From Zanthoxylum bungeanum (lineage: Eukaryota; Streptophyta; Magnoliopsida; Sapindales; Rutaceae), in contig SKCR01036791.1 in the NCBI GenBank assembly GCA_019454045.1, forward strand, positions 62,001 through 126,000: a stretch of DNA of 64,000 bases, written 5' to 3'. The notes beneath the pieces are model-generated. The model did no database searches. It was given only the letters and a program-made list of their open reading frames with translations, and was not told the DNA's origin. How positions within the stretch are numbered: the first letter of the stretch is position 1; the number at the start of each line of letters is the position of its first letter. Below are positions 35,396 through 61,141 of this stretch, in pieces. The position numbers were made by a program, and so were the translations under genes.

Positions 35396-35583
35396 GAGAA
35401 GACCCTCCTAGACATTCATCAGGTCCAGTCGACCATAGCCTCCCTTGGACCTTCATCAGGACTAGTGGAGTGGAGACCTTCATAGACTTTCATCAAGTCC
35501 AGACGACATTGAGGACCCCTGGTCCTTTGACCCGTAGTATGGGGATGATCCTGACCTTCATCTGGTTCAGCCGACTGGGGACA

Positions 35584-39218: not shown

Positions 39219-41025
39219 TGTTGGACAATTATGACCCATAACATCACTATTTGTAAAAGACATTGTGTTTTTTTGTACAAATTAACTATGTGACAAAGGA
39301 AATTACTATTTTATCATTTTGTAATTAGATTACTTGGATATATATAAATGATAAAAGTCCTTATGATTAGTTCCAGATTAATAAGATATGAGACAATATT
39401 AATCCACGAACGGTTTAATCATTAAATATCTCTAGTCGTAGTATTATCGAGACTGGACATCGATAATGCGGAATAGACTAGTATTACACTTGTGCGCGTT
39501 ATGGAAGCTTAACGTCATAGTTCTCATATATTTAAGTATTGGATACTTATGCAAGTGTGATATGAGGTTCTATTAGCCGTTGGACTGGGAACAACTTCAC
39601 TCTGGATAGACCCCTCGGAATCCTATTGGTAGTATGACTATGTGTCTATGGGAATCCGAATCAGGGTAGGTGTATGTGGTCTTAACCTGAGACTTGCATC
39701 GCTAATACTTGCGACAATCAATACACTTTGGTTTTGGTCGTCCGAAGCTTTAATATGTTCTGTGTATGCCTCTTCTAGGTATAGTGAGAATCATAGTGTA
39801 TTGGGTGTGATGTCAAGATGAAAGTATCACTTCAGTCATATAAAGATGATGATCAAGCAGAGACATGGAACTAATACTCTTAAATGTTGTAGCTATTGGG
39901 ATAGTATGACTATGTCATGATTATCCGATTACAGAGACTAGTTGCTAGTGATCCGATATATGCTTCGTACGGGGCAGCCACAATTCCAGCCCTAGGCCTA
40001 ACATGTGACATCCGATACTGGGTCGTATTATGCAATACATAGTATATTATGCACGATACAGATTATATATTCTTCGTTGAATATTTCTGGAGAATTGGGT
40101 AGGCACAATGTTTTTCTAGAAGCCAACCATGTCTTGTAAATCGGTAAGAATGTGGTACGGGGTACGCACGTGTTCGGATAGTCCGATGACCGTATTTACT
40201 ACCAACATATCCAGGGATCTCTTGGGTCGCTTTCCAAAGATTCACCGATGATATTTGACTCGAACAAAATTAATCTGGGATTAATTATGAAAGAGGAAAT
40301 TAATCTGGGATTAATTACAGCGAGAATTTATCTGGGATAAAATTAGAATAGAAGAGAGAACACGATTAATTTTGAATTAATTGATTAAATAATATATTGG
40401 ATATATTAATTGAAATCAGATTTCAATGCGGAATTAAAGTTGGATTTTAATTCGGGCGAACGAATTAATTTGGAATTTTGCTATGCATTATTATTTAAAT
40501 TAAATTGGATTTAATTACGTCACAACGAAAAATTCGTTTAATCGGATTAAACGAACCCGAGCCCAAAGTGTGTTGTATAAGCCAACTTGAATTTTGAATT
40601 CAAAGTGGTGAGACCCACTAACTTACATCAACTTGTCACAAGTGTGATGGAAGTGGTTGGTTGCATTTAATGATATCTTACACACATCTAAAGCTTCTTG
40701 CACAAGCTTTGAAAAACATAACACACCAACTTTTGAAAGTGAAAAACTCTCTCCTCTATTCCCTCTCCTTGGCCGAGAGTTGCTTCTTCTCCATAGACAA
40801 ATTTTGATTCAAAATTTGTTAAAAGCTAGCACTTAAAGAGTAAATCAAGGTGATAGTGAAACTCACCCTTGAGTTTTGAATTCAACCTAAAGCTTGAAGC
40901 TTCCATCATACAAAGAAATACTTGAAATTCCAAGCCGATCAATGTAAGTTATTCCGTAAAATTCCCGTTAAACTCACACACTAAATCAATGTTTAGAGAT
41001 TCTTGACATGTCTCGGACACTAACA
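39219..41025 (+). repeat. 5' LTR of Z
   Basis: 1807 bp, TGTTGGACAATTATG to CGGACACTAACA. The last 173 bp match 60969-61141 closely. Confidence 0.9.
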
Positions 41026-42969: not shown

Positions 42970-43860
42970 CTGTCATATTTCAGCGTTGCATGATGGCTAT
43001 CTTCTCAGACATGCTGGAGCAGAGTATGAAGGTGTTTATGGATGACTTCTCTATGTTTGGAGACTCTTTCGACCATTGCTTGCAAAATCTGGAACATGTG
43101 TTATAAAAGTGCGAAGATACAAACCTGGTACTCAATTGGGAGAAATTCCACTTCATGGTATAGGAAGGTATCGTTCTTGGACACCGGATCTCACAAAAAG
43201 GAATTGAGGTAGACAAGCAAAGATTGAGACAATTGAAAAACTACCTCCACCAACATCTGTCAAAGGGATTCTGAGCTTTCTCGGACATGCAGGTTTTTAC
43301 AGGAGATTTATCAAATACTTTTCCAAGATTGCTAAACCTATGTGCAATCTTTTGGAGAAGGATGTGCATTTCAACTTCACCAAAGAATGCCAGGAAGCTT
43401 TTGAGATCTTAAAACATAATCTGATTTCTGCTCCCATCATTGTAGCACCAGACTGGACCCTTCCATTTGAGGTGATGTGCGATGCTAGTGATTTTGCTGT
43501 AGGTGCGGTTTTGGGACAACGCAAAACAAAGATTTTCTACACCATTTATTACTCCAGCAGAACTCTAAATGAAGCTCAACTCAACTATACAACCACTGAA
43601 AAGGAGTTGCTTGCAGTTGTGTTCGCTTTTGACAAATTTCACTCTTATCTGTTGGGTCCCAAAGTGGTGGTCTACACAGATCATTCAGCAATCAAATAGC
43701 TGATCGCGAAGAAAGATGCCAAACCCAGATTGATCCGTTGGATACTTCTTCTGCAAGAATTCGATGTGGTGATTCGAGATAGGAAAGTGATAGAAAATCA
43801 AGTGGCATATCATTTATCGAGGCTCGAGAATGGAGAAACAGCTGGCAAAGAATTGACAAT
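42970..43860 (+). pseudogene. A1 reverse transcriptase (C-terminal half) and RNase H
   Basis: The RT resumes at RCMMAIFSDM with an intact polymerase box VFMDDFSMFG. Stops or shifts follow near 43101, 43160 and 43270. The RNase H at 43340-43699 reads [38 protein letters not shown] and [11 protein letters not shown], then a stop. It continues in frame as [16 protein letters not shown]. The Athila-lineage assignment rests on the gag and PBS of sister copy A2 and on block order. Confidence 0.9.
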
Positions 43861-45202
43861 CAAAGAAACTTTTCCTTATGAACAGCTGTTTTCCATGAAA
43901 CAACAGGAAATCCCTTGGTATGATGACTATGTCAACTACATAGTGTCAGGAAAATGGCCGTTGGAATGGACAACTCAACAACGGAAGAAGTTCTTCAAAG
44001 AAGTCAAACACTATGTTTGGGATGAGCCGTATCTGTTCAAACGTTGTGCTGATCAATTACTGAGGTGTTGTGTTCCACATGAGGAGGTCAACAGTGTTCT
44101 GCAACATTGTCATTCATCACCATATGGCGGACACTTTAGCGGGAATAAAACTGCAACCAAAGTCCTTCAATCAGGTTTGTTCTGGCTCACTCTTTTTAAA
44201 AATGCTTATCTTTTTGCTCTTCAATGTGACAGGTGCCAAAGAACGGGGAATATTTCAAGGAGAAATGAAGGACCTTTGCAAAATATTCTAGAAGTGGAGA
44301 TATTCGATGTGTGAGGTATTGATTTTATGGGACCCTTTGTTCCATCATTCGGAAACCTGTACATCCTGGTTGCAGTAGACTACGTCTCCAAATGGTTTGA
44401 AGTAATTGCACTGTCATCCAATGATTCAAAAGTGGTGATCAAGTTCCTTAAAAAGAATATTTTCACTCACTTTGGAACACCTCGTGCAATTATCAGTGAT
44501 TGTGGCTCATATTTATACAAATGATACTTCGATGCACTCATATCCAAATACAGAGTTACTCATAAGGTTGCCACTGCCTACCATCCACAGTCAAATGGAC
44601 AGGTTGGGGTTTCAAATAAGGAAATCAAAAGAATCTTTGAAAGAACTGTTGGATCAATAATGAGGGACTGGTCTACAAAACTGGATGATGCATTATGGGC
44701 CTACCGGATAGCTTACAAGACACCCATTGGTATGTCCCCATTTTGAATGGTGTTTGGGAAAGCGTGCCATCTGCCAGTTGAGCTTGAACACATGACATAC
44801 TAGGCACTGAAGAAGTTGAATCTTGATCCACAAGCTGTAGGAAAGAAAAGACTTCACCAACTCAATGAATTGGAGGAATTTCGCCTACAGGCTTATGAGA
44901 ATGCCAGATTATACAAGGAAAAGACCAAGAAATGGCATGACTGAAAAATAGTGCACAAACAGTTGTAACCAAGGCAACAGATTTTGTTGTACAACTCGAG
45001 GTTGAAATTTTTCCCTGGAAAGTTGAAATCAATGTGGTCAGGTCCATTTATGATCACTCATATTTTACCATATGGAGCTGTTGAGTTACTAGATCCCAAC
45101 ACCAACGAAACATTCAAGGTTAATAGTCAGCGTGTCAAGCACTATTGGGGAGAATCAATTGAGCGACAAAAAGAAAGTGTCACACTTTCAGATCCAGCAT
45201 AA
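43861..45202 (+). pseudogene. A1 integrase
   Basis: The zinc-binding domain at 44080-44250 has [20 protein letters not shown] and [12 protein letters not shown]. The core reads DFMGPFVPSFGN near 44325 after a stop at 44312, IISDCGSYLYK near 44500 (canonical second Asp, but altered neighbours and then a stop), and [17 protein letters not shown] near 44590, where Gly replaces the catalytic Glu. The C-terminal part (GPFMITHILPYGAVELLDPN) ends with TAA at about 45202. Inactive. Confidence 0.9.
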
Positions 45203-45340: not shown

Positions 45341-45889
45341 ATGGAAGAAGCTCTCGTAAATCTTCACAAGCAATTTCCTTCTCTCCCTCAAAAATCTCTG
45401 ATAAAAGTTTACAAAGCTCGCTTAGAACGAATGAGACTACTGATGATCAAATATATTCGTACTGACATTCGTTGGATTATTGAAGCACGGGTCTGATTGG
45501 CAGGTGAGTTTTCTGACTCTTTTATTTCACATCTGATTGGTTTAGAAAGAAGCACATATGCTAAAAAGAGAAGAGCCAAAAGAATGTGTGTTTGCTATAA
45601 ATATGCTCGTATGTTTTGTGATACTCATTGTCATTCGTTAGGAATGGTGTCTGATAACCGTGAAGATAAGATTAATTTCATTAGGGATGGCTTGAGTAAA
45701 GAGTTTTTAGATGACATATCTAAAACTCTTGAGACGCATCCCAGTGGATATGTGTATCACGAAATTCGCATGTTATATGCACAATTCCAAAAAGAAAGAC
45801 AACAGTTAAGTCTCATGAATTTGACTCAAAAAGACTCTGTTTGCCAATTTATAAGAAAATTGGATGGGAAGCTTGTCTCTGACGCATAG
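45341..45889 (+). pseudogene. ORF3a of A1: basic, cysteine-containing protein
   Basis: One frame of 183 codons from ATG at 45341, broken only by a TGA at 45494-45496 that is CGA in A2. It lies after pol, behind a pyrimidine-rich stretch and a CAG near 45323 that looks like a splice acceptor. A charged N-terminal part is followed near 45560-45630 by a basic run (AKKRRAKRM) and then cysteines (CYKYARMFCDTHC). That basic-then-Cys layout recalls the small nucleic-acid-binding proteins of carlaviruses, but only by eye. The C-terminal part is helical-looking and charged. It is not a known Athila envelope-like protein as far as I can tell. The same ORF exists in A2. Function unknown; the viral link is inference. 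Confidence 0.6.
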
Positions 45890-46130: not shown

Positions 46131-46784
46131 ATGGAAGCCACTTCAAGAAGACGAGTTGAAAATATCTGTGTGTTTTGTGGAACTAGTGTTGGTACTAAGC
46201 CACAATACGTAGCAGCAGCATAGGAATTGGGTCGAGTCTTAGCTGCAAGGAATATGCACTTAGTATATGGCGGTGGCAATCTTGGACTTATGGGGATCGT
46301 TTCAAAAGCCGTACAAGAAAGAGGCAGTCAACTCTTGGGAATCATCCCAAAACCCTTGGCGGAGGCAAATCTTATTGGACCATCAAACAGAGTGGAACTA
46401 ATCGTGCCAGGTATGTCTGAATGACTGGTAGAAATGATTAACCATGCTGATGCTTTTATTGCTTTGCCAGGTGGCTTGGGCACAATGGAGGAAATTTTTA
46501 TAGTACTATCTTGGGCGAACTTGAACATACACCAGAAACCACTTGGATTGTACAACGTTGATGGATTTTATGATTTTCTTTGTGTGTTTCTTGATGATGC
46601 CCGGAGAAATGGGTTCGTGTCAAAACCTGTAAAAGAACTCTTCTTCACTGCCAGAACTGCCCCATATTTAATTAACCAAATCTTAGCTTTTGAACCACAA
46701 ATTGACCCTATTATTTCAAAGATAAATTGGTCCGAGAATGATCGTGGTAAGAGGCGTAAGATAAATCTGGATCTTAACCTTTAA
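46131..46784 (+). pseudogene. LOG-like cytokinin riboside phosphoribohydrolase inside A1, C-terminal EAR-type tail
   Basis: Intact LOG enzymes release active cytokinin bases from riboside monophosphates in the cytosol and nucleus. The frame runs from ATG 46131 for 217 codons, with two in-frame stops at 46221-46223 and 46422-46424. Family motifs: ENICVFCGTSVG (N-terminal Rossmann strand), HLVYGGGNLGLMGIVSKAV, GIIPKPLAEANLIG, and DAFIALPGGLGTMEEIF, which contains the PGGxGTxxE signature, then LGLYNVDGFYDFL. Plant LOGs usually end soon after this. Here there is a basic patch, GKRRK, and the last residues INLDLNL, fitting LxLxL. No introns, unlike host LOG genes, suggesting capture from RNA. An AG-rich acceptor-like CAG lies before the ORF (near 46078). 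Inactive now. Confidence 0.88.
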
Positions 46785-47687
46785 TTTCATGTAGAATTTC
46801 AGCTAACCAGGTACTATCTTCTAAACTCTTCTTCTACTGTTTAAGACATTGGGGACAATGTCTCATTTAGGTTTGGGGAGGGGAATAATTAATAGTATCT
46901 TGTTTTTTTTCTTGTTATTTTTATTCCAAAATTTTTCGAAAAATACAAAAAAATTGAAAATTTTTAGAAAATTTACAAAAATATATTGTTTTTTTTTTTT
47001 TTATGTTTTTAATTTGATTAATCAAATGAAATTGGTGAGAGATAGTTGTGTAATGAGTTTCCACTCCTGAGACGTATCTCAAACCTATTTCGGAACAAGT
47101 TATTTTTGTTTATTTCCTTTTAAATTATTTAATTTGTGAATTCTCCATTAAACTGACTAAAATTGTCTTCATATGCTCAGTTGACATGTATTATCAACAT
47201 GTATGGTAACATACAGACATGAGAAGTAATTGACGAGTTTGTAATATTCAGTGCTCTAGTTTAATTGGAGGAAGCATCTAAAAAAATGATGGGATAAAAA
47301 AAGAAAAAAGAAAAAAAAATGAAAAAAAAACGTCTGAGATCCGAGTTATTAAGTCTGTAAGGGTGTCTTAACACCTAGTGCCCTAAAGCCAATTGGTTTG
47401 GGAGTCACTGGCCCAAAGCTCGTTACATGGATCGAAGATGTCGTCAATATATATATATATATATATCTGAAGTCTGAGTAATTAAGTCCGTAGGGGTATC
47501 TTAAGACCTAGTGCCCTAAAGTCAATTGGTTTGGGAGTTACTTACCCAAAGCTCGCTACATAGATGGAAGATATTGTATATAAATAAAAAAAAATCAAGA
47601 AAAAATCAAGAAAAAAAATCAGAAAAATTATTCCATTGCTTAAAAAAGGTGTGACTTCTGATATAACTTTAGGACAAAAATATTACT
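46785..47687 (+). other. 3' untranslated region of A1
   Basis: No coding region. It contains A- and T-rich runs and a tandem duplication of about 135 bp (from 47332 and again from 47467), each copy with CACCTAGTGCCCTAAAG and GGTTTGGGAG, separated by a (TA)n microsatellite at 47446-47466. The same arrangement is in A2. At 47688 the sequence jumps into the middle of the LTR through a short CTC microhomology. Confidence 0.7.
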
Positions 47688-48161
47688 CTCCCTTATTTTA
47701 ATATAATAAATTAGTTTCCTTTTTTTTAATTAGTTTCCTTTATATTAGGTAAGACTTTTTATATAATAAATTAGATTAATCTCCCTTATTTTAATTAAAA
47801 TTTGGATTAATTAGTTTCCGCCTATATGGCCATTTAGATGACAACCTTATTTACCGCCTATATGGCTGGTTTTACATTATTGGACTTAGTTTCCGCCTAT
47901 ATGGTCGGTTTATGTGCTAACCTTATTACCCTATATATGGTCAGTTTATATGATTTTGTTACCTTATATATGGTCGGTTAGACTTTGGACAAATGATATC
48001 ACCGCCTATATGGTCGGTTTAAATATAATTAATCGGGAAATTTGACAATAAGAGAGATTTTTAATTTGAAATATTAAAAGTGGATCCTCTAACCCCCAAC
48101 ATTTTCTTTTATTATACTTTTACATTTTTTTTTAATTTTCAGCATTTACTTTATTAATTTC
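47688..48161 (+). repeat. A1 3' LTR, left piece
   Basis: Corresponds to the middle of the A2 LTR (from about 48950). The first 770 bp are missing. It has several TTACCGCCTATATGGTCGGTT units of about 50 bp. Interrupted at 48161 by A2. Confidence 0.85.
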
Positions 48162-50054
48162 TGATGAGCGGAAAATATATCAATATTTACCGCCCATTTT
48201 ACCTAATAATTTGTTTAGTTTCTCAGGTTTGATGAACTTTTTGATGTGTTTTGTAGATAAATAAAGTATCGGGACTTAATGGAATCAACTCGGGGCTAAA
48301 ACGATGAAATCCAAAGAAAAAAATGGCGAAAACAGAAATTTACTATACGCGTCACGAAGTGCAGTCCTAAATTCCAATTTTGCCCAAGTTTCGTATTTTG
48401 ACCATAACTTTTTCATATGATATCTGATTGAGCTGATTCAAGTTGGAGATTTAAGAACACACAAAGATCTACAACTTTGAAGATTTAAATATTTTCGAAT
48501 TCTGAAGTTTGGAAGGCCAAAATTGATGAATAATCTTGTATATTTTGTGTAATTACTATAGTCATTTTCAAAATATAAAATAAAATTAATAAAATAAAAA
48601 AGTAAAAATTGTCAAAATTCCACCAAACATGCTTGCATGTTTGGTGCCATATTTGGTGCCATGTTTGGTGCCATGTTTGGTGCCATGTTTGGTGGAGCAA
48701 TTGGTGGAGAAATTGGTGGAAGCCTTTAGATTTTCCTATAAATATCAAGCTTAACTTTGTAAATTTTTCATACTTTCTTTGGAGGAGTTTCTCTATGAAA
48801 ACCTAAAGGAAAGTGTTTTGTATATTATTAAGTTTTCTTGTATTTTCTTTTTATTTATTTATAAAATTTTGTGTGTTTTCTTTTACAGCATGAGTAGGTA
48901 ATCTCATTCTGTTGGGGTGAAAAGGTGAGACTTTTAATATAATGAATTAGATTAATCTTCCTTATTTTAATTAAAATTTGGATTAATCAGTTACCGCTTA
49001 TATGGACGGTTTAGGTGACAACCTTATTTACCGCTTATATGGTCGGTTTTTCATTTCAGACGTAGTTTCCGCCTATATGGTCGGTTTAGGTAATAACCTT
49101 GTTACCGCCTATATGGTCGGTTAGATTTAATTGAGACAAATGAAATTACTGCCTTTATGGTCTGGTTAATTAATCGGTAAACATTTAGAATAAGGGAGAT
49201 TTCTAATTTTGAAATATTAAAAGTGGATCCTCTAACCCCCAGCATTTTCTTTTATTGTACTTTTAATTTCCAGCATTTACTTTATGTCTTTTATTTTATT
49301 TAAGCTTTTATTGGCCTTAGATATGTGTCGTAACTAAGTCTGTTATCCGGGGTTGTGATGAATTCCAATATCATCGGGTTATAATAGGTTATTTTATAGT
49401 TTGGGTAATATAAAGATTTACTTATTAAGTCTTAAGCTTAATGCGTCTTGTTATTTGACCACTAATAAGATTGATCTGGTAAACTTAAAATAAACTTGAC
49501 AAAAGAATTTTAGGTTTCAGCCTTAGACTTAATAGCCCACGATCTTCCTTGAGGATATATAACCCTTTAATAGATTTCCTTACAGGATAGACATATACCT
49601 GTCGGGCGGGGGTAACCACAATTGGAACTTGATCTTAATGAATCCAGGTAATTTGGTTAACATAGACATATGGTTTAATTGGATTACACTGGGTATGTGC
49701 AGCTGACCATCGACATATGCTTTTGCATAATTTGGTGTTCTAGGTTAGTAAACCAATATATTACACAAACATAAAATAACCACTTCATCTTTTTAAAAGA
49801 TATTTGAAGGATTCACAACCATGGATAGTTTTATAAATTTGAATTTTCCTCAACTTCTTTTCGTGTCATTTTTATTTACTTATTTTAAGTTTAAAAATCA
49901 CCACCCAATCAATCAATAAATCCATTAGATACTCGTAAAAAATTGACTTTATAAATAATAGCTTAGGTATTAAGTTCTCGTGGGATCAATGTTTTTTATA
50001 CTACTTGAACGATACGTACGCTTGCGTTATACGCGTGTGATTACGCCCCGGTCA
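48162..50054 (+). repeat. 5' LTR of A2
   Basis: 1893 bp, TGATGAGCGG to CCCCGGTCA. TATA box CCTATAAATAT at 48735-48745. It contains five GCCATGTTTGGT units (48628-48700) and the ACCGCCTATATGGTCGGTT array (48980-49150). Confidence 0.95.
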
Positions 50055-50059
50055 AGTTG

Positions 50060-50077
50060 TTGGCGTCGTTGCCAGGG
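50060..50077 (+). promoter_or_regulatory. Primer-binding site of A2 (Athila type, tRNA-Asp)
   Basis: TTGGCGTCGTTGCCAGGG just after the LTR. It differs at two positions from the usual Athila site TGGCGCCGTTGCCGGGG. Confidence 0.85.
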
Positions 50078-50185
50078 ACTTATTTATCTTTTACTATTAG
50101 TTTTGGGGTTGGATACGTTACTTGTATCTAATTTCTTTTTACTTATTGTTTTTGTTTTCTTGTGTTTCAGGTTCTCAGACACTAC

Positions 50186-51552
50186 ATGAGACGAACTAGA
50201 AGCTTTGAACTCTGACCGTTTGACCCAGAGATTGAAAGAACCATTAGACAATTGAGAATGGAAAGGCGAGAAGGGTATGAAGTAATTGTTAACATGGAAC
50301 CTGAACCTTTAGAAGTTGCACCACCAATTCCCATTCGATACAGAACCATTCCGGTGGTTGACGGCCTCATTTCCTGTATTGTACTTCCTCTTTGACCAGT
50401 AAATGCGTGTGACATCAAAACATGCATTCAGATGATTCAGCAGTTAGTTCAGTTTGGGGGAAATGCAACTGAAGATCCTAATGCCCACATCAGCAACTTC
50501 CTGGAAGTTTACAGCACTTTCAATTACAACCGAGGAGCTGGAAGAAGCAATGAGACTGCGTGTTTTCCCATATTCCTTAAAAGACAAAGCAAAAGCTTGG
50601 CTACATTCGCTACCAGCAGGTTCCATCACAACTTGGAACACTCTAGCCACCAAATTCCTTGCAACGTACTTTCTACCAGCCAGAACAACAAAAATGAGGA
50701 ATGACATCACATCTTTTGTACAACTTGACTCAGAAACTCTCTACGAAGCTTGGGAAAGGTACAAAGATTTACTCCGGAAATGTCCCCACCATGAGATTCC
50801 AAAATGGTTTCAAGTCCAAACATTCTATAATGGACTTTCTGGACTGATGAGAACCACAATTGATGTTGCTGCTGGAGGAGCTTTAATGGCAATGAGAAGA
50901 TCAAGCATGGGACCTAATCGAAGAAATGGCCAACAACAATTCCTTGTGGCCAACAGAAAGGAGCATGATCCAAAGAATTACAGGAATTTATAAAGTTGGA
51001 GCAAATACAGTAGTCAACGCCAAGCTGGATCATATATGCAAATTCATGGAGACTCTCAGCATACAAAATAACATTGGATCCACTGGTTCACAATATGGAG
51101 GAGCACCAGAACCAAACCAACTTGAAGAGACATTGAATTATGTCAACAATTTCAACAAACAGGGGAACAATCCATATTCCAACACCTTTAACCCATGTTG
51201 GAGGAATCATCCCAATTTCTCATGGAGCAACAATTCAGGGCAAAAGAACTATCCACCACCTGGATTCCAACAGCCGAATAAAGGCCAGGAGCAGGCAACT
51301 GAACCAGGAATAGCAGAAGTGATGGCTCAGTTAAAAAAGTATGATGCTATATTTCAAAGTCAATCTGCTTCCATCAAAGCATTGGAGAATCAGATTGGAC
51401 AACTAGCCAATGCTCAGAGTTACAGACCGTCAGGAAATCTTCCCAGCAATACAGAACCAAATCCAAGGAACCGAGGAAAGAAGCAATGTCAAGCCATTAC
51501 TTTGAAAAGCGGTATGAAATCAACAAAAATATTGGAATCAATGCATCCATAG
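50186..51552 (+). pseudogene. A2 gag
   Basis: ATG at 50186 (MRRTRSFEL, then a stop). Further stops near 50393 and shifts near 50520 and 50935. Athila gag blocks: LVQFGGNATEDPNAHISNFL, LRVFPYSLKDKAKAWLHSLP, GSITTWNTLATKFLATYFLP, LYEAWERYKDLLRKCPHH, VQTFYNGLSG, then NNNSLWPTER and NTFNPCWRNHPNFSW. The C-terminal part has a Q/N-rich stretch. Non-functional. Confidence 0.92.
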
Positions 51553-52200
51553 AAGAAGTTCTAAAAGATGCAGTTCCACAGATTGAGGAAAAAGAAGCAA
51601 AGGAAAAAGAAAAAGATCAAATCACACCACCTCCATCTTTTCCTCAGCGTCTTCAGAAAAAAAAATTAGATAAGCAGTTTGCTCGATTTCTAGAGGTTTT
51701 CAAGAGACTGCACATCAACATTTCATTCGTAGAAGCGTTGGAAGAAATGCCCAGTTATGTCAAATTCATGAAAGACATTCTTTCACGAAAATGGAGATTG
51801 GGAGATTACGAGACAATTGCATTGACAAAAGAATTCAGTGCCATCATTCAGAGGAAACTACCCCCAAAGTTGAAAGATCCAGACAGTTTTACTGTCCCAT
51901 GCACCATTGGAGAACATTATATCGGTAAGGCTTTATGTGATTTGGGTGCAAGTGTTAACTTAATGCATTTTTCTATTTATAGGAAACTGTAAATTAAAGA
52001 AGCAATGCCCATCTTAGTCTCTCTACAACTTGCCAATCGAACACTCGCATTTCCGAGAGGAGTCGTTGAAGATGTGATGGTCAAAGTTGACAAACTCATT
52101 CTCCCATCAAATTTCATTATCATTGACATGGAAGAAGACAAAGATGCCTATCATTCTTGGGAGACCATTCTTGGCTACAGGTCGAACTATTATTGATGTA
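51486..52200 (+). pseudogene. A2 protease region
   Basis: Acidic/basic linker (KEAKEKEKDQITPPPSFPQR), then YETIALTKEFSAIIQRKLPP and the protease active site region ALCDLGASVNLMHFSIYRKL (D-L-G-A as usual in Athila), a stop at 51990, then VSLQLANRTLAFPRGVVEDV and LPSNFIIIDMEEDKDA. Confidence 0.88.
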
Positions 52201-53463
52201 TAAAAAAGAGAATTAACGATGAAAGTTCAAGACTAAGAAGTTACCTTTAATGTTTTCAAAGCCATGAAATTTCTGAGTGATGAAAATGAGGAAGAATGTT
52301 TCAGAATTGATGTTGTTGATAGTATCATCCAGGATACTGATATATTCATTTCCACGGACAAACTTGAAGCTTGCATCACCAATATGACTGACAGTGAGCT
52401 AGATGCTGAAATTCTTGAATGTATCAACTATCTTGACAAGCCATTTCGTTTCAAATCAACAACCACCAGTTGAAAGTGTGGAACTCCCAATGAAAGATCG
52501 AATCAAGCCCTCAATTGAAGAACCACCACAGCTGGAGCTAAAGTTACTTCCGAGCCATCTCAGGTATGCATTTCTTGGAAACTCTTCTGAATTACCTATA
52601 ATTATTTCTTCTTCGCTAACATTAGAGCAGAAAGAAAAGTTGATGAGAGTGTTACGAGAGCACAAGAAAGCTATTGGCTGGGCTATAGCAGACATTCGAG
52701 GCATTAGTCCATCATTTTGAATGCACAAGATTCTGATGAACGATTAGTACAAACCCACAGTGGAGTATCAACGGAGACTCAATCCAATCATGAAGGAAGT
52801 CGTGAAGAAAGAAATCATCAAATGGTTGGATGCTGGCATCATTTACCCCATCTCATACAGCAGTTGAGTGAGTCCTATGCAGTGTGTGTCGAAGAAATGA
52901 GGAATTAATGTAGTCACAAATGAAAAGAATGAGCTGATTCCAACAAGAACAGTGACTGGATGGAGAGTATGCATAGACTACCGCAAGCTGAACAAAGCAA
53001 AAAGGAAATACCATTTTATGCTGCCATTCATTGATCAGATGCTAGACAGACTGGCGAGACATGAGTTTTATTATTTTCTGGATGGATATTCAAGTTACAA
53101 TCAGATTTCTATCGCCTCAGAAGATCAGGAGAAAACCACCATTATATGTCCGCATGGTACTTTTGCTTTTCGTATGATGCCATTTGGACTATGTAATGCC
53201 TCTGCCACATTTCAACGTTGCATGATGGCCATCTTCTCAGATATGCTGGAACAGTGTATGGAGGTTTTCATGGATGTTCTCTGTGTTTGGAGACTCTTTC
53301 GACCACTGCTTGCAAAATCTGGAACATGTGTTACAAAGATGCGAAGATACCAACCTGGTACTAAACTAGGAGAAATGCCACTTCATAGTGCAGGAAGGCA
53401 TTGTTCTTGGACATCGGATCTCACAAAAAAGAATCGAGGTAGACAAAGCAAAGATCGAGACAA
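52201..53463 (+). pseudogene. A2 reverse transcriptase
   Basis: The linker 52264-52720 has LKLLPSHLRYAFLGNSSELP and AIGWAIADIRGISPSF. The RT reads TGWRVCIDYRKLNKA, YYFLDGYSSYNQISIASEDQ, FGLCNASATFQRCMMAIFSD at 52952-53270. A two-base loss at 53274 destroys the FMDD polymerase box (FMD then frameshift), which is intact in A1. The remaining RT continues in other frames to 53463. Confidence 0.9.
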
Positions 53464-55380
53464 TTGAAAAATTACCACCTCACCAACATCTCTGTAAAAG
53501 GGATTCAGAGCTTTCTTGGACATTTAGGTTTTTACATGAGATTTATCAAAGACTTTTCCAAGATTTCTAAACCTCTGTGCAATCTTCTGGAGAAAGATGT
53601 GTCTTTCAACTTCACCAAAGAATGCCAGGAAGCTTTTGAGATCCTTAAACAGAAGCTTGTTTCTGCTCCCATCATTGTAGCACCAGACTGGACCCTTCCA
53701 TTTGAAGTGATGTGCGATGCTAGTGATTTTGCTATAGGTGCAGTTTTGGGACAACACAAAGCAAAGATTTTCCACACCATTTATTATTCCAGCAGAACTC
53801 TAAATGAAGCTCAACTCAACTACACAACCACTGAAAAGGAGTTACTTGCAGTTGTGTTTGCTTTTGATAAATTCCGCTCTTTTCTGCTGGGTCCCAAAGT
53901 GGTGGTCTACACAGATCATTCAGCAATCAAATACTTAATCGCGAAGAAAGATGCCAAACCCATATTGATCCGTTGGATACTTCTACTGCAAGAATTTGAC
54001 GTGGAGATCAGAGACAGGAAATGGACAGAAAATCAAGTGGCAGATCATTTATCGAGGCTCGAGAATGGAGAAACAGTTGCAAAGAACTAACAATCAAAGA
54101 AACCTTTCAGATGAACAGCTATTGCCATGAAACAACATGATGTCCTTGGTATACTGACTATGTCAACTATATAGTGTCAGGAAAATGGTCGTTGGAATGG
54201 ACAACTCAGCAACGGAAGAAATTCTTTAAAAAGTCAAGCATTATATCTGGGATGAGCCGTACCTATTCAAACGTTGTGCATATCAATTACTGAGGCGTTG
54301 TGTTCCACATGAGGAAGTCAACAATGTTCTGCAGCATTGTCATTCATCACCATATGACAGACACTTCAGCGGGAATAAAACTAAGCCAAAGTCCTACAAT
54401 CAGGTTTGTTCTGGCCCACTCTTTTTAAAGATGCTTATCTGTTTGCTGTTCAATGTGACAGGTTCCAGAGAACATGAAATATTTCAAGGAGAAATGAAGG
54501 ACCGCTGTAAAATTTTCTGGAAGTGGAGATATTCCATGTGTGGGGTATTGATTGTATGAGACCCTTTGTTCCATCATTCGAAAACCTGTACATACTGGTT
54601 TCAGTAGACTACGTCTCCAAATGGGTTGAAGCAATTGCATTACCATCAAATGATTCAAAAGTGGTGATCAAGTTCCTTAAAAAGAATATTTTCACTCGCT
54701 TCGGAACACCTCGTGCAATTATCAGTGATGGTGGCTCACATTTCTGCAACAAATACTTTGATGTACTCCTATCCAAATACAGAGTTACTCATAAGGTTGC
54801 TACAGCCTACCATCCACAGTCAAATGGGCAAGTTGAAGTTTCAAACAGGGAGATCAAAAGAATCTTGGAGAGAACCGTTGGATCAACAATGAGAGACTGG
54901 TCTACAAAACTGGATGACGCATTATGGGCCTATAGGACATCTTACAAAACACCCATTGGTATGTCCCTATATCGAATGGTGTTTGGGAAAATGTGTCATC
55001 TGCCAGTGGAGCTTAAACATAAGACGTACTGGGCACTGAAGAAGTTGAATCTTGATCCACAAACTGCATGAGAGAAAAGACTCCACCAACTAAACGAATT
55101 GGATGAATTTCTCTTACAGGCTTATGAGAATGCCAGATTATAAGGAAAAGACCAAGAAATGACATGACCGAAAAATAGTGCACAAACAGTTGGAACCAAT
55201 GTAGTAGGTGTTGTTGTACAACTTGAGGACTTTTCCCTGGAAATTTACCATATGGAGCTATTGAGTTACTGGATCCCAACACCAACGAAACATTCAAGGT
55301 TAACAATCAACGTGTTAAGCACTATTGCGGAGAATCAATTGAGCGACAAAAAGAAAGTGTCACACTTTCAGATCCAGCAT
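53464..55380 (+). pseudogene. A2 RNase H and integrase
   Basis: The RNase H at 53464-54090 is unbroken ([53 protein letters not shown]). The integrase zinc domain (54290-54470) is frameshifted. The core at 54523-55071 reads [32 protein letters not shown] and [20 protein letters not shown], so D, D and E are all present, followed by [15 protein letters not shown] stop at 55069 and deletions follow in the C-terminal part. Confidence 0.92.
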
Positions 55381-55520
55381 AACGTTCGGGCAGTCACGTC
55401 TAGCTGACGATGTTAAACTTAGCGCTAGCTGGGAGGCAACCCATGCAATTTGTGTATATATTGTGATTTGGTGTGATTTCATTTTGTGTGTTTAGTTTTC
55501 GCAGGTTAAGTCATTTCAAC

Positions 55521-56060
55521 ATGGAAGAAGCTCTCGCAAATCTTCACAAGCAATTTCCTTCTCTCCCTTAAAACTCTCTAATGAAAGTCTACAAAACTCG
55601 CTTGGAACGGATGAGACTACTGACGATCCTTGGTGTTCCTAATGACATTCATTGGGTAATTGAAGCACGGGTCCGATTAGCAGGTGAGTATTCCGATTCT
55701 TGTAATTTTATTTGCCTGGTTTTGGAAGAAGCACATATGCAAAGAAACATAGAGCTAAACAAATGGATGTTTGTTACAAATGTGCATGCTAGAATTGCAA
55801 TACTCGTTGTCGTTCTCTAGGAATGTCTGATAATCGTGAAGATAAAATTAAATTCATTAAAAATGGCTTGAGTAAGGAGTCTTTAGATGATATATCTTCG
55901 ACTCTTGAGACGCATCCCAGTGGATATGTTCATATAGTCATTCGCAAATTACATACACAATTTCGAAAAGAAAGACAACAGTAAGTCTCGGAATCTAACT
56001 CAAAAATACCATATTTGCCAATTTATAAGAAAATTGGATGGGAAGCTTGTCTCTGACACA
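55521..56060 (+). pseudogene. ORF3a of A2
   Basis: Same start and position as in A1 (ATG 55521), preceded by TTTTCGCAG, a good splice-acceptor match. A stop occurs at 55568-55570, with frameshifts near 55710-55740 and 55985. The cysteine cluster reads CYKCAC, stop, NCNTRC in one frame, so more cysteines are present here than in A1. Lesions differ from those of A1 except for the general decay, which argues that the ORF was intact in a common ancestor. Confidence 0.6.
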
Positions 56061-56309
56061 TAGACATCAATCAAGCTGTTACTTTCCTGTAAATATTATA
56101 TCTCTTTGTCTTATCTAATAATTGTGATTTGATTTTTTATTTTCTTTTATTTTCTCCAACAGGATCCATACTTTTTAACCTTTCAGATTTATTTTACTGT
56201 TTAACTAATAATTGTCATTTGGCAGGTACTAGTGCTATTATTTTTACTCACCTTTTCAGGTGTTATAAATTCAATTCATCATTGCACTCTTGAAGGCATC
56301 CGGATAAAA

Positions 56310-56960
56310 ATGGAAGCCACTTCAAGAAGACGAGTTGAAAACATCTGTGTGTTTTGAGGTACTAGTGTTGGAGTTAAACTAGAATACGTAGCGGCAACAC
56401 AAGAATTGGGTTGAGTCTTAGCTTCAAGGAATATGCACTTAGTATATGGCGGTGGAAATCTTGGACTAATGGGGATCGTTTCAAAAGCTATACAGGAAGG
56501 AGGAAGTCAAGTCTTGGGAATCATTCCAAAACCCTTAGCGGAGGCGAATCTTATTGGACCATCAAACGAAGAGGAACTAATTGTGCCTGGTATGTCTGAA
56601 CGACTGATAGAAATGGTTAACCGTGTTGATGCTTTTATTGCTTTGCCAGGTGGCTTGGGCACATTGAAGGAAATATTTATAGTGTTATCTTGGGCGAACT
56701 TGAACATACAACAAAAAACCAATTGGGCTGTTTAACGTTGATGGATTTTATGATTTTCTTTGTGTGTTTCTTGATGATGCCCGGAGAAATGGGTTCGTGA
56801 CAAAACCTCTGAAAGAACTCCTCTCACTGCCAGAACTGCCCAGGATTTACTTGACCAAATCTTAGCTTATGAACCACAGATTGACCGTATCCTTTCCAAG
56901 ATAAAATGGTCCGAATATGATCGTGGTAAGAAGCGTCGGATAATCTGGATCTTAATCTAA
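56310..56960 (+). pseudogene. LOG-like gene of A2
   Basis: ATG at 56310. Stops at 56355-56357 and 56412-56414 precede an unbroken run at 56433-56735: LVYGGGNLGLMGIVSKAI, GSQVLGIIPKPLAEANLIG, MSERLIEMVNRVDAFIALPG and GLGTLKEIFIVLSWA. The Arg in MSERLIEM occupies the place of the catalytic Arg of LOG enzymes; in A1 this codon is a stop. A frameshift near 56720 follows. The C-terminus has GKKRR, and a one-base loss puts the LDLNL tail out of frame. Different lesions from A1, so decay was independent. Upstream CAG acceptor-like sites occur at 56223-56226 and 56258. Confidence 0.86.
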
Positions 56961-57890
56961 CTGTAATTTTCTTTCTAGACGTAGCATTTCAGCTAACCAT
57001 GTACAATTTTCTAAACTCTTCTTCTACTTTTAAGACATTGAGGACAATGTTTCTTTTTTATTTGTGGGGTGGGGAATAGTTAATAGTATCTTATTTTTAT
57101 TGTGTTATTTTAGCCCAAAATTTATCGAAAAATACAAAAAATTGAAAATATTTACAAAAATCAAAAAAATATTTTGTGTTTTTATTTTTATTTTTAAATT
57201 TGATTAATCGGGTGAAATTGGTGAGAGATAGCTGTGTAATGAGTTTCCATTCCTGAGACGTATCTCAACATATTTCGGAAAAAGTTAATTTTTGTTTATT
57301 TCCTTTTGAATTATTTAATTTGTGAATTCTCCATAAAATTGACTAAAATGGATCTTCATATGCTCAGTTGACAGGTATTATCAACATGCATGGTAAATTG
57401 AAAAGTTTGTAATATTCAGTTCTTTAGTTTAATTGGAGGAAGTTTCTAAAAAAGCAATGGGGTAAAAAAATGCGAAAAAAACGTCTGAGATCCGAGTCAT
57501 TAAGTCCGTAGGGGTGTTTTAACACCTAGTACCCTAAAACCAATTGGTTTGGGAGTCACTGGCCCAAAGATCGCTATATGGATCGAATATGTTGCAAATA
57601 TATATATATATATATATATCTGAAGTCTGAGTAATTAAGTCTGTAGGGGTGTCTTAACACCTAGTGCCCTAAAGCCAACTGGTTTGGGAGCCACTGGCCC
57701 AAAGCTCGCTACATAGACGGAAGATAATGTATATAAATAAATAAAAATCAATTAAAAATAAATAAAAAAAATCAGAAAAATCAGAAAAATTATTTCATTG
57801 CTTAAAAAATGTGTGAATTCTGATATAACTTTAGGACAAAAATAAAACTCTCTTTTCAATTACACTTGTGACTATTGTGGGCAAAATGAG
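56961..57890 (+). other. 3' untranslated region of A2
   Basis: As in A1: AT-rich, with a tandem duplication of about 135 bp (from 57484 and 57620) separated by a (TA)n run at 57599-57620. Confidence 0.7.
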
Positions 57891-58160
57891 TTGATTAATA
57901 TTTTGTTGGCTGTGTATATGGAGAATGGTAAAAATAATCGGAGAATTTACTTATTCGGTAATTTAGAAAGAATCAAAACAATTATTGACTTGGATAAGAA
58001 GTTTCATCTGTTTAGTCACAAACTTCTTTATTCTCTTTTCTCTTGTCTTTTTGCTTTTGTGTGCATTAGTTTTACAATCTTTTTACTTTTATTAAACATT
58101 TGTGGGTATCGCCGTTGTAAACCCTCACGAGACTACAACTCGTCCACTAGGGACACCTAG
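57891..58160 (+). CDS. Short ORF with one hydrophobic segment before the PPT of A2
   Basis: 89 codons. An N-terminal charged part is followed by a hydrophobic stretch (LFSCLFAFVCISFTIFLLLL, about residues 48-68) and a short basic tail. Position just upstream of the PPT is where a membrane anchor of an envelope-like protein could lie. The matching part of A1 is deleted, so conservation cannot be tested, and T-rich non-coding DNA can produce such a segment by chance. Confidence 0.2.
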   Translation: MINILLAVYMENGKNNRRIYLFGNLERIKTIIDLDKKFHLFSHKLLYSLFSCLFAFVCISFTIFLLLLNICGYRRCKPSRDYNSSTRDT

Positions 58161-58277
58161 GGGTTTAAAGGCTTGTTGCATACGCTAAATGCAACCGTGA
58201 TCCCTACAAAAGTGGCTTAGTTTAATTTTAATTGTTTTTTGCATTTTATTTTTCTGTTTTGCTCGAGGACTAGCAAA

Positions 58278-58295
58278 ATGTTAGGTTTGGGGGTG
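58278..58295 (+). promoter_or_regulatory. Polypurine tract of A2
   Basis: TGTTAGGTTTGGGGGTG directly before TGATGAGCGG. Confidence 0.8.
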
Positions 58296-60190
58296 TGATG
58301 AGCGGAAAATATATCAATATTTACCGCCCATTTTACCTAATATTTTGTTTAGTTTCTCGAATTTGATGAACATTTTGATTTGTTTTGATGTGTTTTGTAG
58401 ATAAATAAAGTATCAGACTTAATGGAATCAACTCGGGACTAAAATGATGAAATCCGGAGAAAAAATGGCGAAAATGGAAATTTACTATACGCGTCACGAA
58501 ATGCAGTCCTAAATTCCAATTTTACCCAAGTTTCGTATTTTGGCCATAACATTTTCATCTGCTATCCGATTGAGCTGATTCAAGTTGCAGATTAAAGAAG
58601 ACACAAAGATCTACAACTTTAAGATTTAAATATTTTCGAATTTGAAGTTTGGAAGGCCGAAATTGATGAATAATCTATAATATTTTGTGTAATTACTATA
58701 GTCATTTTCAAAATATAAAATGAAATTAAAAATAAAAAAGTAAAAATTGTCAAACTTCCACCAAATATGCAAGCATGTTTGGTGCCATGTTTGGTGGAGC
58801 AATTTGTGGAGCAATTGGTGGAGAAATTGGTGGAAGCCTTTAGATTTTCCTATAAATACCAAACTTAAATTTGTAAATTTTTCATGCTTTATTTGGAGGA
58901 GTTTCTCCATGAAAACCTAAAGGAAAGTGTCTTGTATATTATTTAAGTTTTCTTGTATTTTATTTTTATTTATTTAATAAAATTTTGTGTGTTTTCTTTT
59001 ACAGCATGAGTAGGTAATCTCATTATGCTGGGGTGAAAAGTGAGACTTTTAATATAATGAATTAATTAATCTCCCTTATTTTAATTAAAATTTGGATTAA
59101 TCAGTTACCGCATATATGGCCGGTTTAGGTGACAACCTTATTTACCGCCTATATGGTCGGTTTTTCATTTCAGACGTAGTTTCCGCCTATATGGTCAGTT
59201 TAGGTAATAACCTTGTTACCGCCTATATGGTCGGTTGGATTTAATTGAGACAAATGAAATTACCGCCTTTATGGTCTGGTTAATTAATCGGTAAACATTT
59301 ATAATAAGGGAGATTTTTAATTTTGAAATATTAAAAGTGGATCCTCTAACCCCAGCATTTTCTTTTATTGTACTTTTAATTTCCAGCATTTACTTTATTT
59401 AATTTTCAGCATTTACTTTATGTCTTTTATTTTATTTAAGTTTTTATTAGCCTTAAATATGTGTCGTAACTAAGTCTGTTATTTGGGGTTGTGATGAATT
59501 CCAATATCATCGGGTTATAAGGGGTTATTTTATAGTTTGGGTAATATAAAGATTTACTTATTAAGTCTTAAGATTAATGCGTCTTGTTAACTTGCCACTA
59601 ATAAGATTGATCTGGTAAACTTGAAATAAACTTGACAAAGGAATTTTAGGTTTCAGTCTTAGACTTAATAGCCCACGATCTTCCTTGAGGATAGATAACC
59701 CTTTAATAGATTTCCTTACAGGATAGACATATACCTGTCGGGCTGGGGTAACCACAATTGGAACTTGATCTTAATTAATCCAGGTAATTTGGTTAACATA
59801 GACATATGGTTTAATTGGATTACACTGGGTATGTGCAGCTGACCATCGACAGAGGCTTTTGCATAATTTCGTGTTCCAGGTTAGTAAACTAATATATTAC
59901 ACAAACATAAAATAACCACTTCATATTTTTAAAAGATATTTGAAGGATTCATAACCCTGGATAGTTTTATAAATTTGAATTTTCCTCAACTTCTTTTTGC
60001 GTCATTTTTATTTACTTATTTGAAGTTTAAAAATCACTACCCAATCAATCAATAAATCCATTAGATATCATAAAAATTTGACTTCATAAATTAATAGCTT
60101 AGGTATTAAGTTCTCGTGGGATCGATTCTTTTTATACTACTTGAACTATACGTGCGCTTGCGTTATACACGTGTGATTACGCACCGGTCA
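58296..60190 (+). repeat. 3' LTR of A2
   Basis: 1895 bp, pair of 48162-50054. It has only two GCCATGTTTGGT units, versus five in the 5' LTR, and an extra CAGCATTTACTTTA unit near 59400. Confidence 0.95.
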
Positions 60191-60968
60191 ATTTCCAGCA
60201 TTTACTTTATGTCTTTTATTTTATTTAAGCTTTTATTAGCCTTAGATATGTGTCGTAATTAAGTCTGTTATCTGAGGTTGTGATGAATTCCAATATCATC
60301 GGGTTATAAGGGATTATTTTATAGTTTGGGTAATATAAAAATTTACTTATTAAGTCTTAAGCTTAATGCGTCTGGTTAACTGGCCACTAATAAGATTGAT
60401 CTGGTAAACTTAAAATAAACTTGACAAATGAATTTTAGGTTTCAGCCTTAGACTTAATAGTCCACGATCTTCCTTGAGGATAGATAACATTTTAATAGAT
60501 TTCTTTACAGGATAGACATATACCTGTCGGGCGGGGTAACTACAATTGGAACTTAGTCTTAATGAATCCAGGTATTTGGTTGACATAGACATATGGTTTA
60601 ATTGGGTTACACTGGGTATGTGAACTGACCATCGACAGAGGCTTTTGCATAATTGTGTTCCAGGTTAGTAAACCAATATATTACACAAACATAAAATAGC
60701 CACTTCATCTTTTAAAAGATATTGAAAGAATTCGTAACCCTGGATAGTTTCTTAATATTGAATTTTCTTTAATCTATTTATGCGCAATTTTACTTGTTTT
60801 AAATTTATAGTCACCACCCAATCAAACAATCAATCAATTAGATACTTGTAATAATTTGGCTTCATAAACTAATAGCTTAGGTTTTAAGTCCTTGTGGGAT
60901 CAATACTTTTTATACTACTTAAACTATACGTGCGCTTGTGTTATACGCGTGTGATTACGCACCGGTCA
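60191..60968 (+). repeat. A1 3' LTR, right piece
   Basis: Continues 47688-48161 after A2. It begins with the ATTTC target duplication and ends ACCGGTCA at 60968, where the Z LTR resumes. Confidence 0.9.
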
Positions 60969-61141
60969 ATAGGGAAACTCACCCTTGAGTTTTTAATTCA
61001 ACATAAAGCTTGGAGCTTCCATCATACAAAGAAATACTTGAAATTCCAGCCGATCAATGTAAGTTATTCCGAAAAATTTCCCTTTAAATTCACACACTAA
61101 ATCAATGTTTAGAGATTCTTGGCATGTCTAGGACACTAACA
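60969..61141 (+). repeat. 3' LTR remnant of Z
   Basis: Last 173 bp of the Z LTR, matching 40853-41025, followed by the TATAT duplication. Confidence 0.9.

What the first reader, a model, noticed from the sequence alone, without database searches (positions are those of the whole stretch)
46131..56960. Athila retrotransposon lineage carrying a LONELY GUY-like cytokinin-activation gene
A1 (46131-46784) and A2 (56310-56960) each carry, at the same place after integrase and inside the element, an intronless ORF with the LOG signatures YGGGNLGLMG and PGGxGTxxE. A2 is bounded by LTRs and a perfect TSD, so the gene is inside the mobile unit. The two copies have different inactivating mutations, so the gene was intact in a shared ancestor and was amplified with the element. 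LOG enzymes are established cytokinin-activating phosphoribohydrolases. Why a retroelement keeps one is unknown; raising local cytokinin and cell division in meristem cells, where transposition is inherited, is one inference. I know of no described Athila element with this cargo.
Basis: partly seen in the sequence, partly recalled or inferred. Interest (0 to 1): 0.93.

Follow-up and report, generated by a model that had tools for sequence, protein, structure and literature searches.

The report
Retrotransposon carrying a plant hormone-enzyme gene
A very abundant jumping gene of a citrus-family plant carries, as a regular part, a gene derived from a plant hormone-activating enzyme, often beside a gene resembling a plant-virus defence-blocking protein, and natural selection has kept the enzyme gene working in the copies that spread.

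Summary
Two Athila copies in the window carry broken LOG-like genes after integrase. A2 runs 48162-60190, with 1.9-kb LTRs and a 5-bp duplication (ATTTC). The genome holds 6,304 exact copies of a LOG 18-mer; LOG lies at its expected place in 16 of 20 elements sampled by LTR junction. Variants private to one copy fall evenly on codon positions (121/112/123); those shared by ten or more do not (22/9/43). So LOG decays neutrally after insertion but is under purifying selection in the replicating lineage.

The cargo is not new: LOG-type domains in Citrus gypsy elements are in print, and matK places this host in Rutaceae, nearest Zanthoxylum.

New here: 45 sampled element-type LOGs separate from host LOGs. 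Of 97, most keep the catalytic Arg/Glu but replaced residues assigned to the cytokinin side chain, and end in a basic, EAR-like LxLxL tail. A conserved ORF upstream in 21 of 40 copies resembles flexivirus nucleic-acid-binding silencing suppressors. Derivatives without detectable reverse transcriptase or integrase keep LOG. Cytokinin activation is plausible but unproven.

The parts
48157..48161 (.). Target-site duplication ATTTC, left of A2
   Evidence: repeated at 60191-60195
48162..50054 (+). 5' LTR of A2 (TGATGAGCGG ... GGTCA)
50060..50079 (+). Primer-binding site TTGGCGTCGTTGCCAGGGAC; tRNA-Asp type as in Athila (that assignment is recalled)
50454..50990 (+). A2 gag (Retrotrans_gag PF03732)
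51486..51992 (+). A2 protease region (no Pfam hit; named by position)
52952..53467 (+). A2 reverse transcriptase piece (RVT_1)
53464..54090 (+). A2 RNase H (RT_RNaseH)
54523..55071 (+). A2 integrase core (rve)
55521..56057 (+). A2 upstream cargo ORF, broken: homologue of flexivirus nucleic-acid-binding / silencing-suppressor proteins
   Evidence: tblastn with the L008 ORF; family:
56310..56960 (+). A2 LOG-like gene, broken (2 early stops, frameshift)
58283..58295 (+). Polypurine tract AGGTTTGGGGGTG before the 3' LTR
   Evidence: exact tract-LTR junction found 6,507 times
58296..60190 (+). 3' LTR of A2
60191..60195 (.). Target-site duplication ATTTC, right of A2
42972..43849 (+). A1 RT/RNase H remnant (no gag or protease match found before it)
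44294..44836 (+). A1 integrase remnant
45341..45889 (+). A1 upstream cargo ORF (open piece 45497-45889 hits Carla_C4 and Viral_NABP)
46131..46784 (+). A1 LOG-like gene, broken (2 in-frame stops)
60191..60969 (+). Probable rest of A1's damaged 3' LTR, split off by the insertion of A2

Best explanation
This is a high-copy Athila-type lineage (Ty3/gypsy) in a Rutaceae genome in which a captured, intronless LOG gene has become a standard component before the 3' LTR; in about half of the sampled copies it stands next to a conserved ORF related to flexivirus nucleic-acid-binding silencing suppressors. SHOWN: position, copy number, neutral decay after insertion but purifying selection in the replicating lineage, LOG fold, catalytic pair kept in most members, changed prenyl-site residues, conserved basic + LxLxL tail, presence of LOG in derivatives without detectable RT/INT. 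INFERRED: the protein is made from a spliced RNA and enters the nucleus. There it works as a nucleoside-5'-monophosphate phosphoribohydrolase of changed base preference (a cytokinin or a related nucleotide) and docks to host co-repressors of the TOPLESS type through its EAR-like tail. With the upstream protein damping RNA silencing, it keeps the host cell permissive or dividing, which favours the copy that encodes it. My odds by step: captured and selected 0.95; upstream ORF homologous to viral NABP 0.85; LOG catalytic in most lineages 0.65; substrate range changed 0.55; tail binds co-repressor 0.5; benefit through host-cell state 0.45.
For: 6,304 exact LOG 18-mers, 0 for the pattern read backwards; 6,507 tract-LTR junctions; LOG in 16 of 20 junction-sampled copies. 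Codon-position test on 73 copies: private 121/112/123, shared by 10+ 22/9/43, N/S 3.40 to 0.82; Fisher p 3e-12 for private against shared by 4+. The 3' flank, read in an arbitrary frame, stays even (41/36/41 for 4+; 36 of 40 copies mapped). Upstream ORF, shared by 3+: 25/20/49 (20 of 21 copies mapped). The model of P0001, a protein of this type, matches Arabidopsis LOG 2a33 (TM 0.95 on target length, 0.76 on query length). Of 97 element-type LOGs: R98 86, E121 96, W128 96, but K99 7, E124 7, H96 23; strict C-terminal LxLxL 78 of 97 against 1.5% in shuffled tails. Three host LOG loci of the same genome keep MHQRK (2 of 2 where that site was read) and E124 (3 of 3), are intron-split and lack the tail. 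Tree: 45 element-type LOGs on one side, hosts and a bacterial LOG on the other, 96/91. Upstream ORF: 50 of 54 match Viral_NABP and 47 of 54 Carla_C4 at E <= 0.001. LOG stands in six fetched derivatives in which A2's RT and integrase find no match (L049-L053, L055).
Against: No expression, protein or enzyme data. Arg98 is not Arg in 11 of 97 (9 Gln, 1 Cys, 1 Leu) and is Gln in the intact copy L091 here, so catalysis is not needed everywhere. Wheat LOGs with conserved residues differ in activity (PMC11593424), so pocket residues do not settle the substrate. The derivatives were picked from LOG-bearing copies, so their rate of LOG retention was not measured. LOG distances between the two classes equal those within them (0.095 against 0.095 and 0.092), so constraint in derivatives may be inherited from autonomous sources by recombination. 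Shared variants are not independent events. The tree holds 42 of the 97 proteins, all found by likeness to the element LOG, and only four host LOGs, two of them partial. That LOGs of other species lie in retroelements is mostly inferred; two contig lengths over 2,000 bp (4,511 and 8,723) recur in both protein lists. The EAR/TOPLESS link is recalled and untested.
Confidence: 0.55

Rival explanations
1. Plain cytokinin activation: the element LOG makes free cytokinin like host LOGs, pushing cells to divide so that new insertions are inherited.
For: LOG fold and PGGxGTxxE kept, R98 86 of 97 and E121 96 of 97. The earliest branches (a group with two Xanthoceras proteins and two unnamed relatives, then P0040) keep the whole canonical pocket, so the captured ancestor probably was a normal LOG.
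Against: K99, E124 and H96, assigned to the prenyl-group site in PMC4979012 (passages), are replaced in 90, 90 and 74 of 97; host LOGs of the same genome keep them where read.
Confidence: 0.25
2. Pseudoenzyme: the LOG fold is kept as a nuclear adaptor (dimer plus EAR-like tail) that recruits co-repressors; catalysis is secondary or lost.
For: Tail conserved at long distance (78 of 97 strict, 87 of 97 relaxed); Gln for the catalytic Arg in 9 of 97, seven of them (P0008, P0011, P0012, P0014, P0020, P0025, P0028) in proteins close to one another in the hit list, and in the intact copy L091.
Against: E121 (96 of 97), PGGxGT and W128 (96 of 97) stay conserved, which a pure adaptor would not need. 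The group with Xanthoceras proteins has the basic patch without LxLxL.
Confidence: 0.15
3. Passenger: a captured host gene copied along without function.
For: In 63 of 74 LOG-bearing copies no intact frame was found, and private variants are neutral.
Against: Variants shared by 10+ copies show N/S 0.82 against 3.40 for private ones. Intact 217-codon frames and the tail recur in proteins of several plant genera.
Confidence: 0.04
4. Assembly or annotation artefact: host LOG genes misread as element cargo.
For: None found; the assembly is fragmented (51,709 contigs).
Against: With a 63-aa host query, 29 places match at 53-90%, 23 of them ending at residue 47 or 48 as an exon would, while the other 121 of the 150 scored rows match at 39-44% and run on to residue 62. 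LTRs, TSD and thousands of copies.
Confidence: 0.01

Closest known systems
Gypsy elements with a LOG/YgdH domain in Citrus (and Populus): Steinbauerova et al. 2011, seen only as cited in Alvarado-Marchena et al. 2022 (PMC9289625; abstract, passages and section 12 read)
   Same: Gypsy-type elements with a LOG-type domain; Citrus is in the same family (Rutaceae) as the host inferred here. I recall, but could not read here, that the 2011 abstract speaks of two Athila-like elements similar to LOGL4.
   Different: The passages read report domain presence only. Selection test, changed pocket, EAR-like tail, the viral-NABP-like neighbour and RT/INT-less derivatives are not in them; the 2011 paper itself was not seen.
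Phalaenopsis gypsy elements with an AlkB m6A demethylase (PMC9289625, abstract and section 12)
   Same: An enzyme domain of cellular type kept as an extra ORF in gypsy elements.
   Different: Another enzyme, with activity shown in vitro; its proposed role concerns RNA methylation; no viral-type neighbour in the parts read.
Carlavirus/allexivirus cysteine-rich proteins (PF01623, PF05515)
   Same: Basic stretch directly before a four-cysteine cluster; Pfam scores over cut-off; most of the best structural matches bear such names. Viral members act as silencing suppressors, and CVB p12 as a transcription factor linked to hyperplasia (passages).
   Different: Cysteine spacing is CX2CX4CX3C here against CX2CX12CX4C; about 182 aa; lies in a retroelement.
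Plant LOG proteins (AtLOG3 2a33, AtLOG8 1ydh; these LOG numbers are recalled)
   Same: Fold, PGGxGTxxE, catalytic Arg/Glu in most.
   Different: Intronless; prenyl-site residues replaced in most; basic + LxLxL tail.

Membership tests
Athila (Ty3/gypsy) LTR retrotransposon | gag then RT-RNaseH-integrase in gypsy order between LTRs | tested here: met
   A2:
Athila (Ty3/gypsy) LTR retrotransposon | LTRs with TG...CA ends and a 5-bp target-site duplication | tested here: met
   A2:
Athila (Ty3/gypsy) LTR retrotransposon | Primer-binding site of the tRNA-Asp type | tested here: inconclusive
   TGGCGCCGTTGCCGGGGA or a near form follows the LTR in A2 and six fetched copies; the link to tRNA-Asp is recalled, not matched to a tRNA here
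Athila (Ty3/gypsy) LTR retrotransposon | Extra ORF between integrase and the 3' LTR | tested here: met
Athila (Ty3/gypsy) LTR retrotransposon | Place of its RT among Athila RTs in a tree | not tested
   no reference RT set was fetched
LOG phosphoribohydrolase (cytokinin-activating) | LOG fold | tested here: met
   model of P0001 against 2a33_B, TM 0.95 on target length
LOG phosphoribohydrolase (cytokinin-activating) | PGGxGTxxE motif and catalytic Arg/Glu | tested here: met
   E121 96 of 97 and R98 86 of 97; not met in 11 of 97 at R98
LOG phosphoribohydrolase (cytokinin-activating) | Prenyl-group site residues His, Lys, Glu (positions as in PMC4979012) | tested here: not met
   K99 7 of 97, E124 7 of 97, H96 23 of 97
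LOG phosphoribohydrolase (cytokinin-activating) | NCBIfam equivalog cut-off for cytokinin LOG (NF058542) | tested here: inconclusive
   104.8-122.7 bits in three element-type LOGs against a cut-off of 300, but the two Arabidopsis LOGs reach only 133.5 and 116.5, so the cut-off does not discriminate; the broader TIGR00730 is met by all of these
LOG phosphoribohydrolase (cytokinin-activating) | Release of free cytokinin from its riboside monophosphate | not testable with these tools
   needs an enzyme assay
Flexivirus nucleic-acid-binding / cysteine-rich protein (upstream ORF) | Score over the Pfam cut-off for PF05515 or PF01623 | tested here: met
   PF05515 29.9 and 26.8 against 23 in two intact copies; PF01623 22.7 and 21.3 over 20.9 in two of three, 19 in the third; 50 of 54 and 47 of 54 at E <= 0.001
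Flexivirus nucleic-acid-binding / cysteine-rich protein (upstream ORF) | Zinc-finger spacing CX2CX12CX4C (as reported for one carlavirus) | tested here: not met
   CX2CX4CX3C here
Flexivirus nucleic-acid-binding / cysteine-rich protein (upstream ORF) | Silencing suppression | not testable with these tools
   needs an assay

The most novel reading that the evidence does not exclude
An ancient Athila lineage spread over several plant families carries a two-gene host-control module in place of env: a flexivirus-type silencing suppressor/zinc-finger protein, and a LOG enzyme whose pocket was rebuilt for another nucleotide and which gained a TOPLESS-docking tail. LOG is selected even in derivatives that have lost reverse transcriptase, so it acts in cis for the copy that bears it. 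It implies gene flow between retroelements and plant RNA viruses, in a direction still open.
Probability: 0.3. Interest if true: 0.88.

Novelty: new variant of a known kind. Interest (0 to 1): 0.67.

Why it matters
Extra ORFs of plant retrotransposons mostly have no known function. Here one can be tested directly: an enzyme with a known assay, thousands of copies, evidence of selection, a traceable change of active site and tail, and a viral-type neighbour. It makes 'why does a retroelement keep a hormone gene' an experiment, and suggests that Athila elements may act on silencing and host transcription in the way viruses do.

Tried and rejected
Viral contigs (IMG/VR) gave no relative of the element LOG with one query, P0001. 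ORFX of the second element class has no Pfam match over cut-off; a SpoIISA hit (18.9 bits, cut-off 27) and others are taken as chance. Host LOG genes could not be ranked with an 89-aa query because element copies fill the 150 scored rows; a 63-aa piece separated them. The AlphaFold model of the upstream ORF is weak (pLDDT 64, pTM 0.30). Its viral matches all have E over 0.03; I use only the fact that 22 of the top 27 rows bear silencing-suppressor, RNA/nucleic-acid-binding or 15-kDa protein names of viruses that I recall to be flexiviruses. In print, LOG cargo: (led to PMC9289625; one search found nothing). Upstream ORF within retrotransposons: one search found no paper with any two of its five terms; one search found 340 papers with two of three terms, of which the 10 listed do not hold 'viral nucleic acid binding' and the other 330 were not seen. 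Subscription journals are mostly not held. The acceptor-like CAG|GT before LOG (39 of 39 mapped copies) and before the upstream ORF (18 of 18) is conserved, but so is much of the region (mean 0.88 and 0.90); it suggests splicing, no more. A control showed that the NCBIfam cytokinin-LOG cut-off is missed by Arabidopsis LOGs too, so I dropped it as evidence. Places passed over when taking the lists in order: C275 and C416 (18-mer list) and C9 (junction list), all near contig ends. Rows dropped: two duplicate loci (L078, L089), four junction loci without LOG, and one of 74 copies for low coverage; frames cut by the ends of short pieces would count as not intact. My notes of 'about 9' integrase hits and of 0% K99 were wrong; searches show 7 of 40 and 7 of 97.
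Full report
What is there. The window is part of a 3.96-Gb plant assembly. Two Athila-type elements lie in its last third. A2 (48162-60190) has LTRs of about 1.9 kb, TGATGAGCGG...GGTCA, 91.5% alike where aligned, a TTGGCGTCGTTGCC primer site, a polypurine tract and a perfect ATTTC duplication. Between its LTRs stand gag, a protease region, RT, RNase H, integrase, an upstream cargo ORF and a LOG-like gene. A2 appears to lie in the damaged 3' LTR of A1. Both LOG genes of the window are broken, in different ways.

How common. An 18-mer of the LOG motif occurs 6,304 times exactly (3,152 on each strand), the same pattern read backwards never. A 23-mer over polypurine tract and LTR start occurs 6,507 times. 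Of 20 such junctions taken in list order (one at a contig end passed over), 16 have LOG at the expected distance. In 40 LOG copies taken in list order from the 18-mer, 21 have the upstream ORF and 19 another ORF (ORFX) before LOG; an integrase match within the stretch fetched was seen in 7. Seven stretches of 9.9 kb, all picked for LOG, show more than one build: L054 has RNase H, integrase, upstream ORF and LOG; L052, L053 and L055 have gag, protease, upstream ORF and LOG but no match to A2's RT, RNase H or integrase; L049-L051 have ORFX and LOG and no match to A2's gag-pol. The full order is shown by A2 alone. L049 has LTRs 97.8% alike over the 1,309 columns compared and an intact LOG frame.

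Selection. Of 74 LOG-bearing copies not chosen for intactness, 11 have an intact frame. On 73 of them, variants seen in one copy only fall 121/112/123 on the codon positions (N/S 3.40), as expected of dead copies. Variants in 10 or more copies fall 22/9/43 (N/S 0.82). Private against 4+ copies gives Fisher p 3e-12. The 3' flank read in an arbitrary frame stays even (41/36/41 for 4+). For variants shared by three or more, LOG shows the third-position excess both in the upstream-ORF class (33/15/52) and in the ORFX class (29/11/61); the upstream ORF shows it (25/20/49), though not for variants shared by just two (21/19/18); ORFX hardly does (28/26/33). Caution: LOG distance between classes equals that within them, so LOG probably moves between classes by recombination and constraint in derivatives may be inherited.

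What the protein is. The model of an element-type LOG, P0001 (pLDDT 86.5), matches Arabidopsis LOG 2a33. Positions named in PMC4979012 (passages) as catalytic (Arg, Glu) are kept in 86 and 96 of 97 related proteins. Of those named for the prenyl group, Lys is kept in 7, Glu in 7, His in 23, Met in 80 and Trp in 96 of 97. Three host LOG loci of the same genome keep the host residues where these were read, are split by introns and lack the tail. Element-type proteins end in a basic patch and LxLxL (78 of 97 strict, 87 relaxed; 1.5% in shuffled tails); of 15 intact copies of this genome, 9 end in INLDLNL and 14 in it or in a one-residue variant. LxLxL as a co-repressor (EAR) motif is recalled. 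Gln stands for the catalytic Arg in 9 of 97 and in L091 here. That residues need not predict activity is shown for wheat LOGs (PMC11593424 passages), so 'changed substrate' is a lead, not a result; I lowered that step slightly, from 0.6 to 0.55, on rereading it.

History. The 97 are the full-length ones (208-260 aa) among the 120 listed of 7,852 relatives. In a tree of 50 proteins, 42 of these and three own copies lie on one side, and two Arabidopsis LOGs, two partial host loci and a bacterial LOG on the other (96/91). First branches inside are a group of four (P0081 and P0117 of Xanthoceras, P0033 and P0037 unnamed; 94/66) with canonical pocket and no LxLxL, and P0040 with canonical pocket and LxLxL; the 40 others have a changed pocket. 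This fits one capture of a normal LOG, then gain of the tail and rebuilding of the pocket. Named sources in the list include Populus, Paulownia, Reevesia, Diplodiscus and Xanthoceras, but their genomic context was not seen. Two contig lengths over 2,000 bp are common to the LOG and upstream-ORF lists, which suggests co-occurrence.

The upstream ORF. About 182 aa, 334 relatives at E <= 0.001; the 120 listed all carry PF01623, many PF05515 too. In a scan of 54, 50 match Viral_NABP and 47 Carla_C4. Fold matches point the same way but are individually weak. Viral proteins of this kind are silencing suppressors, and one acts as a transcription factor linked to hyperplasia (passages in PMC8839810 and PMC12172455). 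The zinc-finger spacing differs, so membership is not claimed, only homology.

Host. A chloroplast-derived matK stretch is nearest to Zanthoxylum (86% over 63% of the query), then mostly other plants that I recall to be Rutaceae; Zanthoxylum is in Rutaceae. Citrus belongs to the same family (recalled), so the known Citrus elements may be the same lineage; not tested.

Mechanism. Committed reading: after insertion most copies die; active ones make, perhaps from spliced RNAs (acceptor-like CAG|GT sites before both ORFs, 39 of 39 and 18 of 18 mapped copies), a silencing-suppressor-like protein and a nuclear LOG-type hydrolase with an EAR-like tail, which hold the host cell in a permissive or dividing state. 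Selection, fold, motifs and architecture are shown; expression, location, substrate and partners are inferred.

Verdict. Observation confirmed; cargo already known in kind; the changed pocket, tail, viral-type neighbour and selection evidence make it a new variant worth testing.

Noticed in passing
window 45341-45889 and 55521-56057: Second conserved cargo ORF related to flexivirus nucleic-acid-binding silencing suppressors; named relatives in Xanthoceras, Populus, Acer, Orobanche and Rhamnella.
   Followed up: yes
window 35581-37758 (minus strand): Another LTR of the same family on the opposite strand, possibly a solo LTR.
   Followed up: no
window 40853-41025 and 60969-61141: A stretch of about 173 bp, 93.7% alike, flanks the A1/A2 complex on both sides; not a simple target-site duplication.
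   Followed up: no
L049-L051: Derivative elements with ORFX-LOG and no match to A2's gag-pol; ORFX has no Pfam match over cut-off and shows little codon-position bias.
   Followed up: partly
window 11790-12532 and 37760-38357: Tandem-repeat blocks related to each other.
   Followed up: no
window 62162-63655: Minus-strand ORFs that look like pieces of a FAR1/MULE-type transposase (recognised by eye, not searched).
   Followed up: no
L091: Intact, divergent element LOG of this genome with Gln in place of the catalytic Arg.
   Followed up: partly
G000:C2730:2237-2425 (L098) and G000:C42560:159005-159193: Host-type LOG places (59% to the query) that run on past the exon end seen in most host LOGs, with GGFGT instead of GGYGT in L098.
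   Followed up: partly
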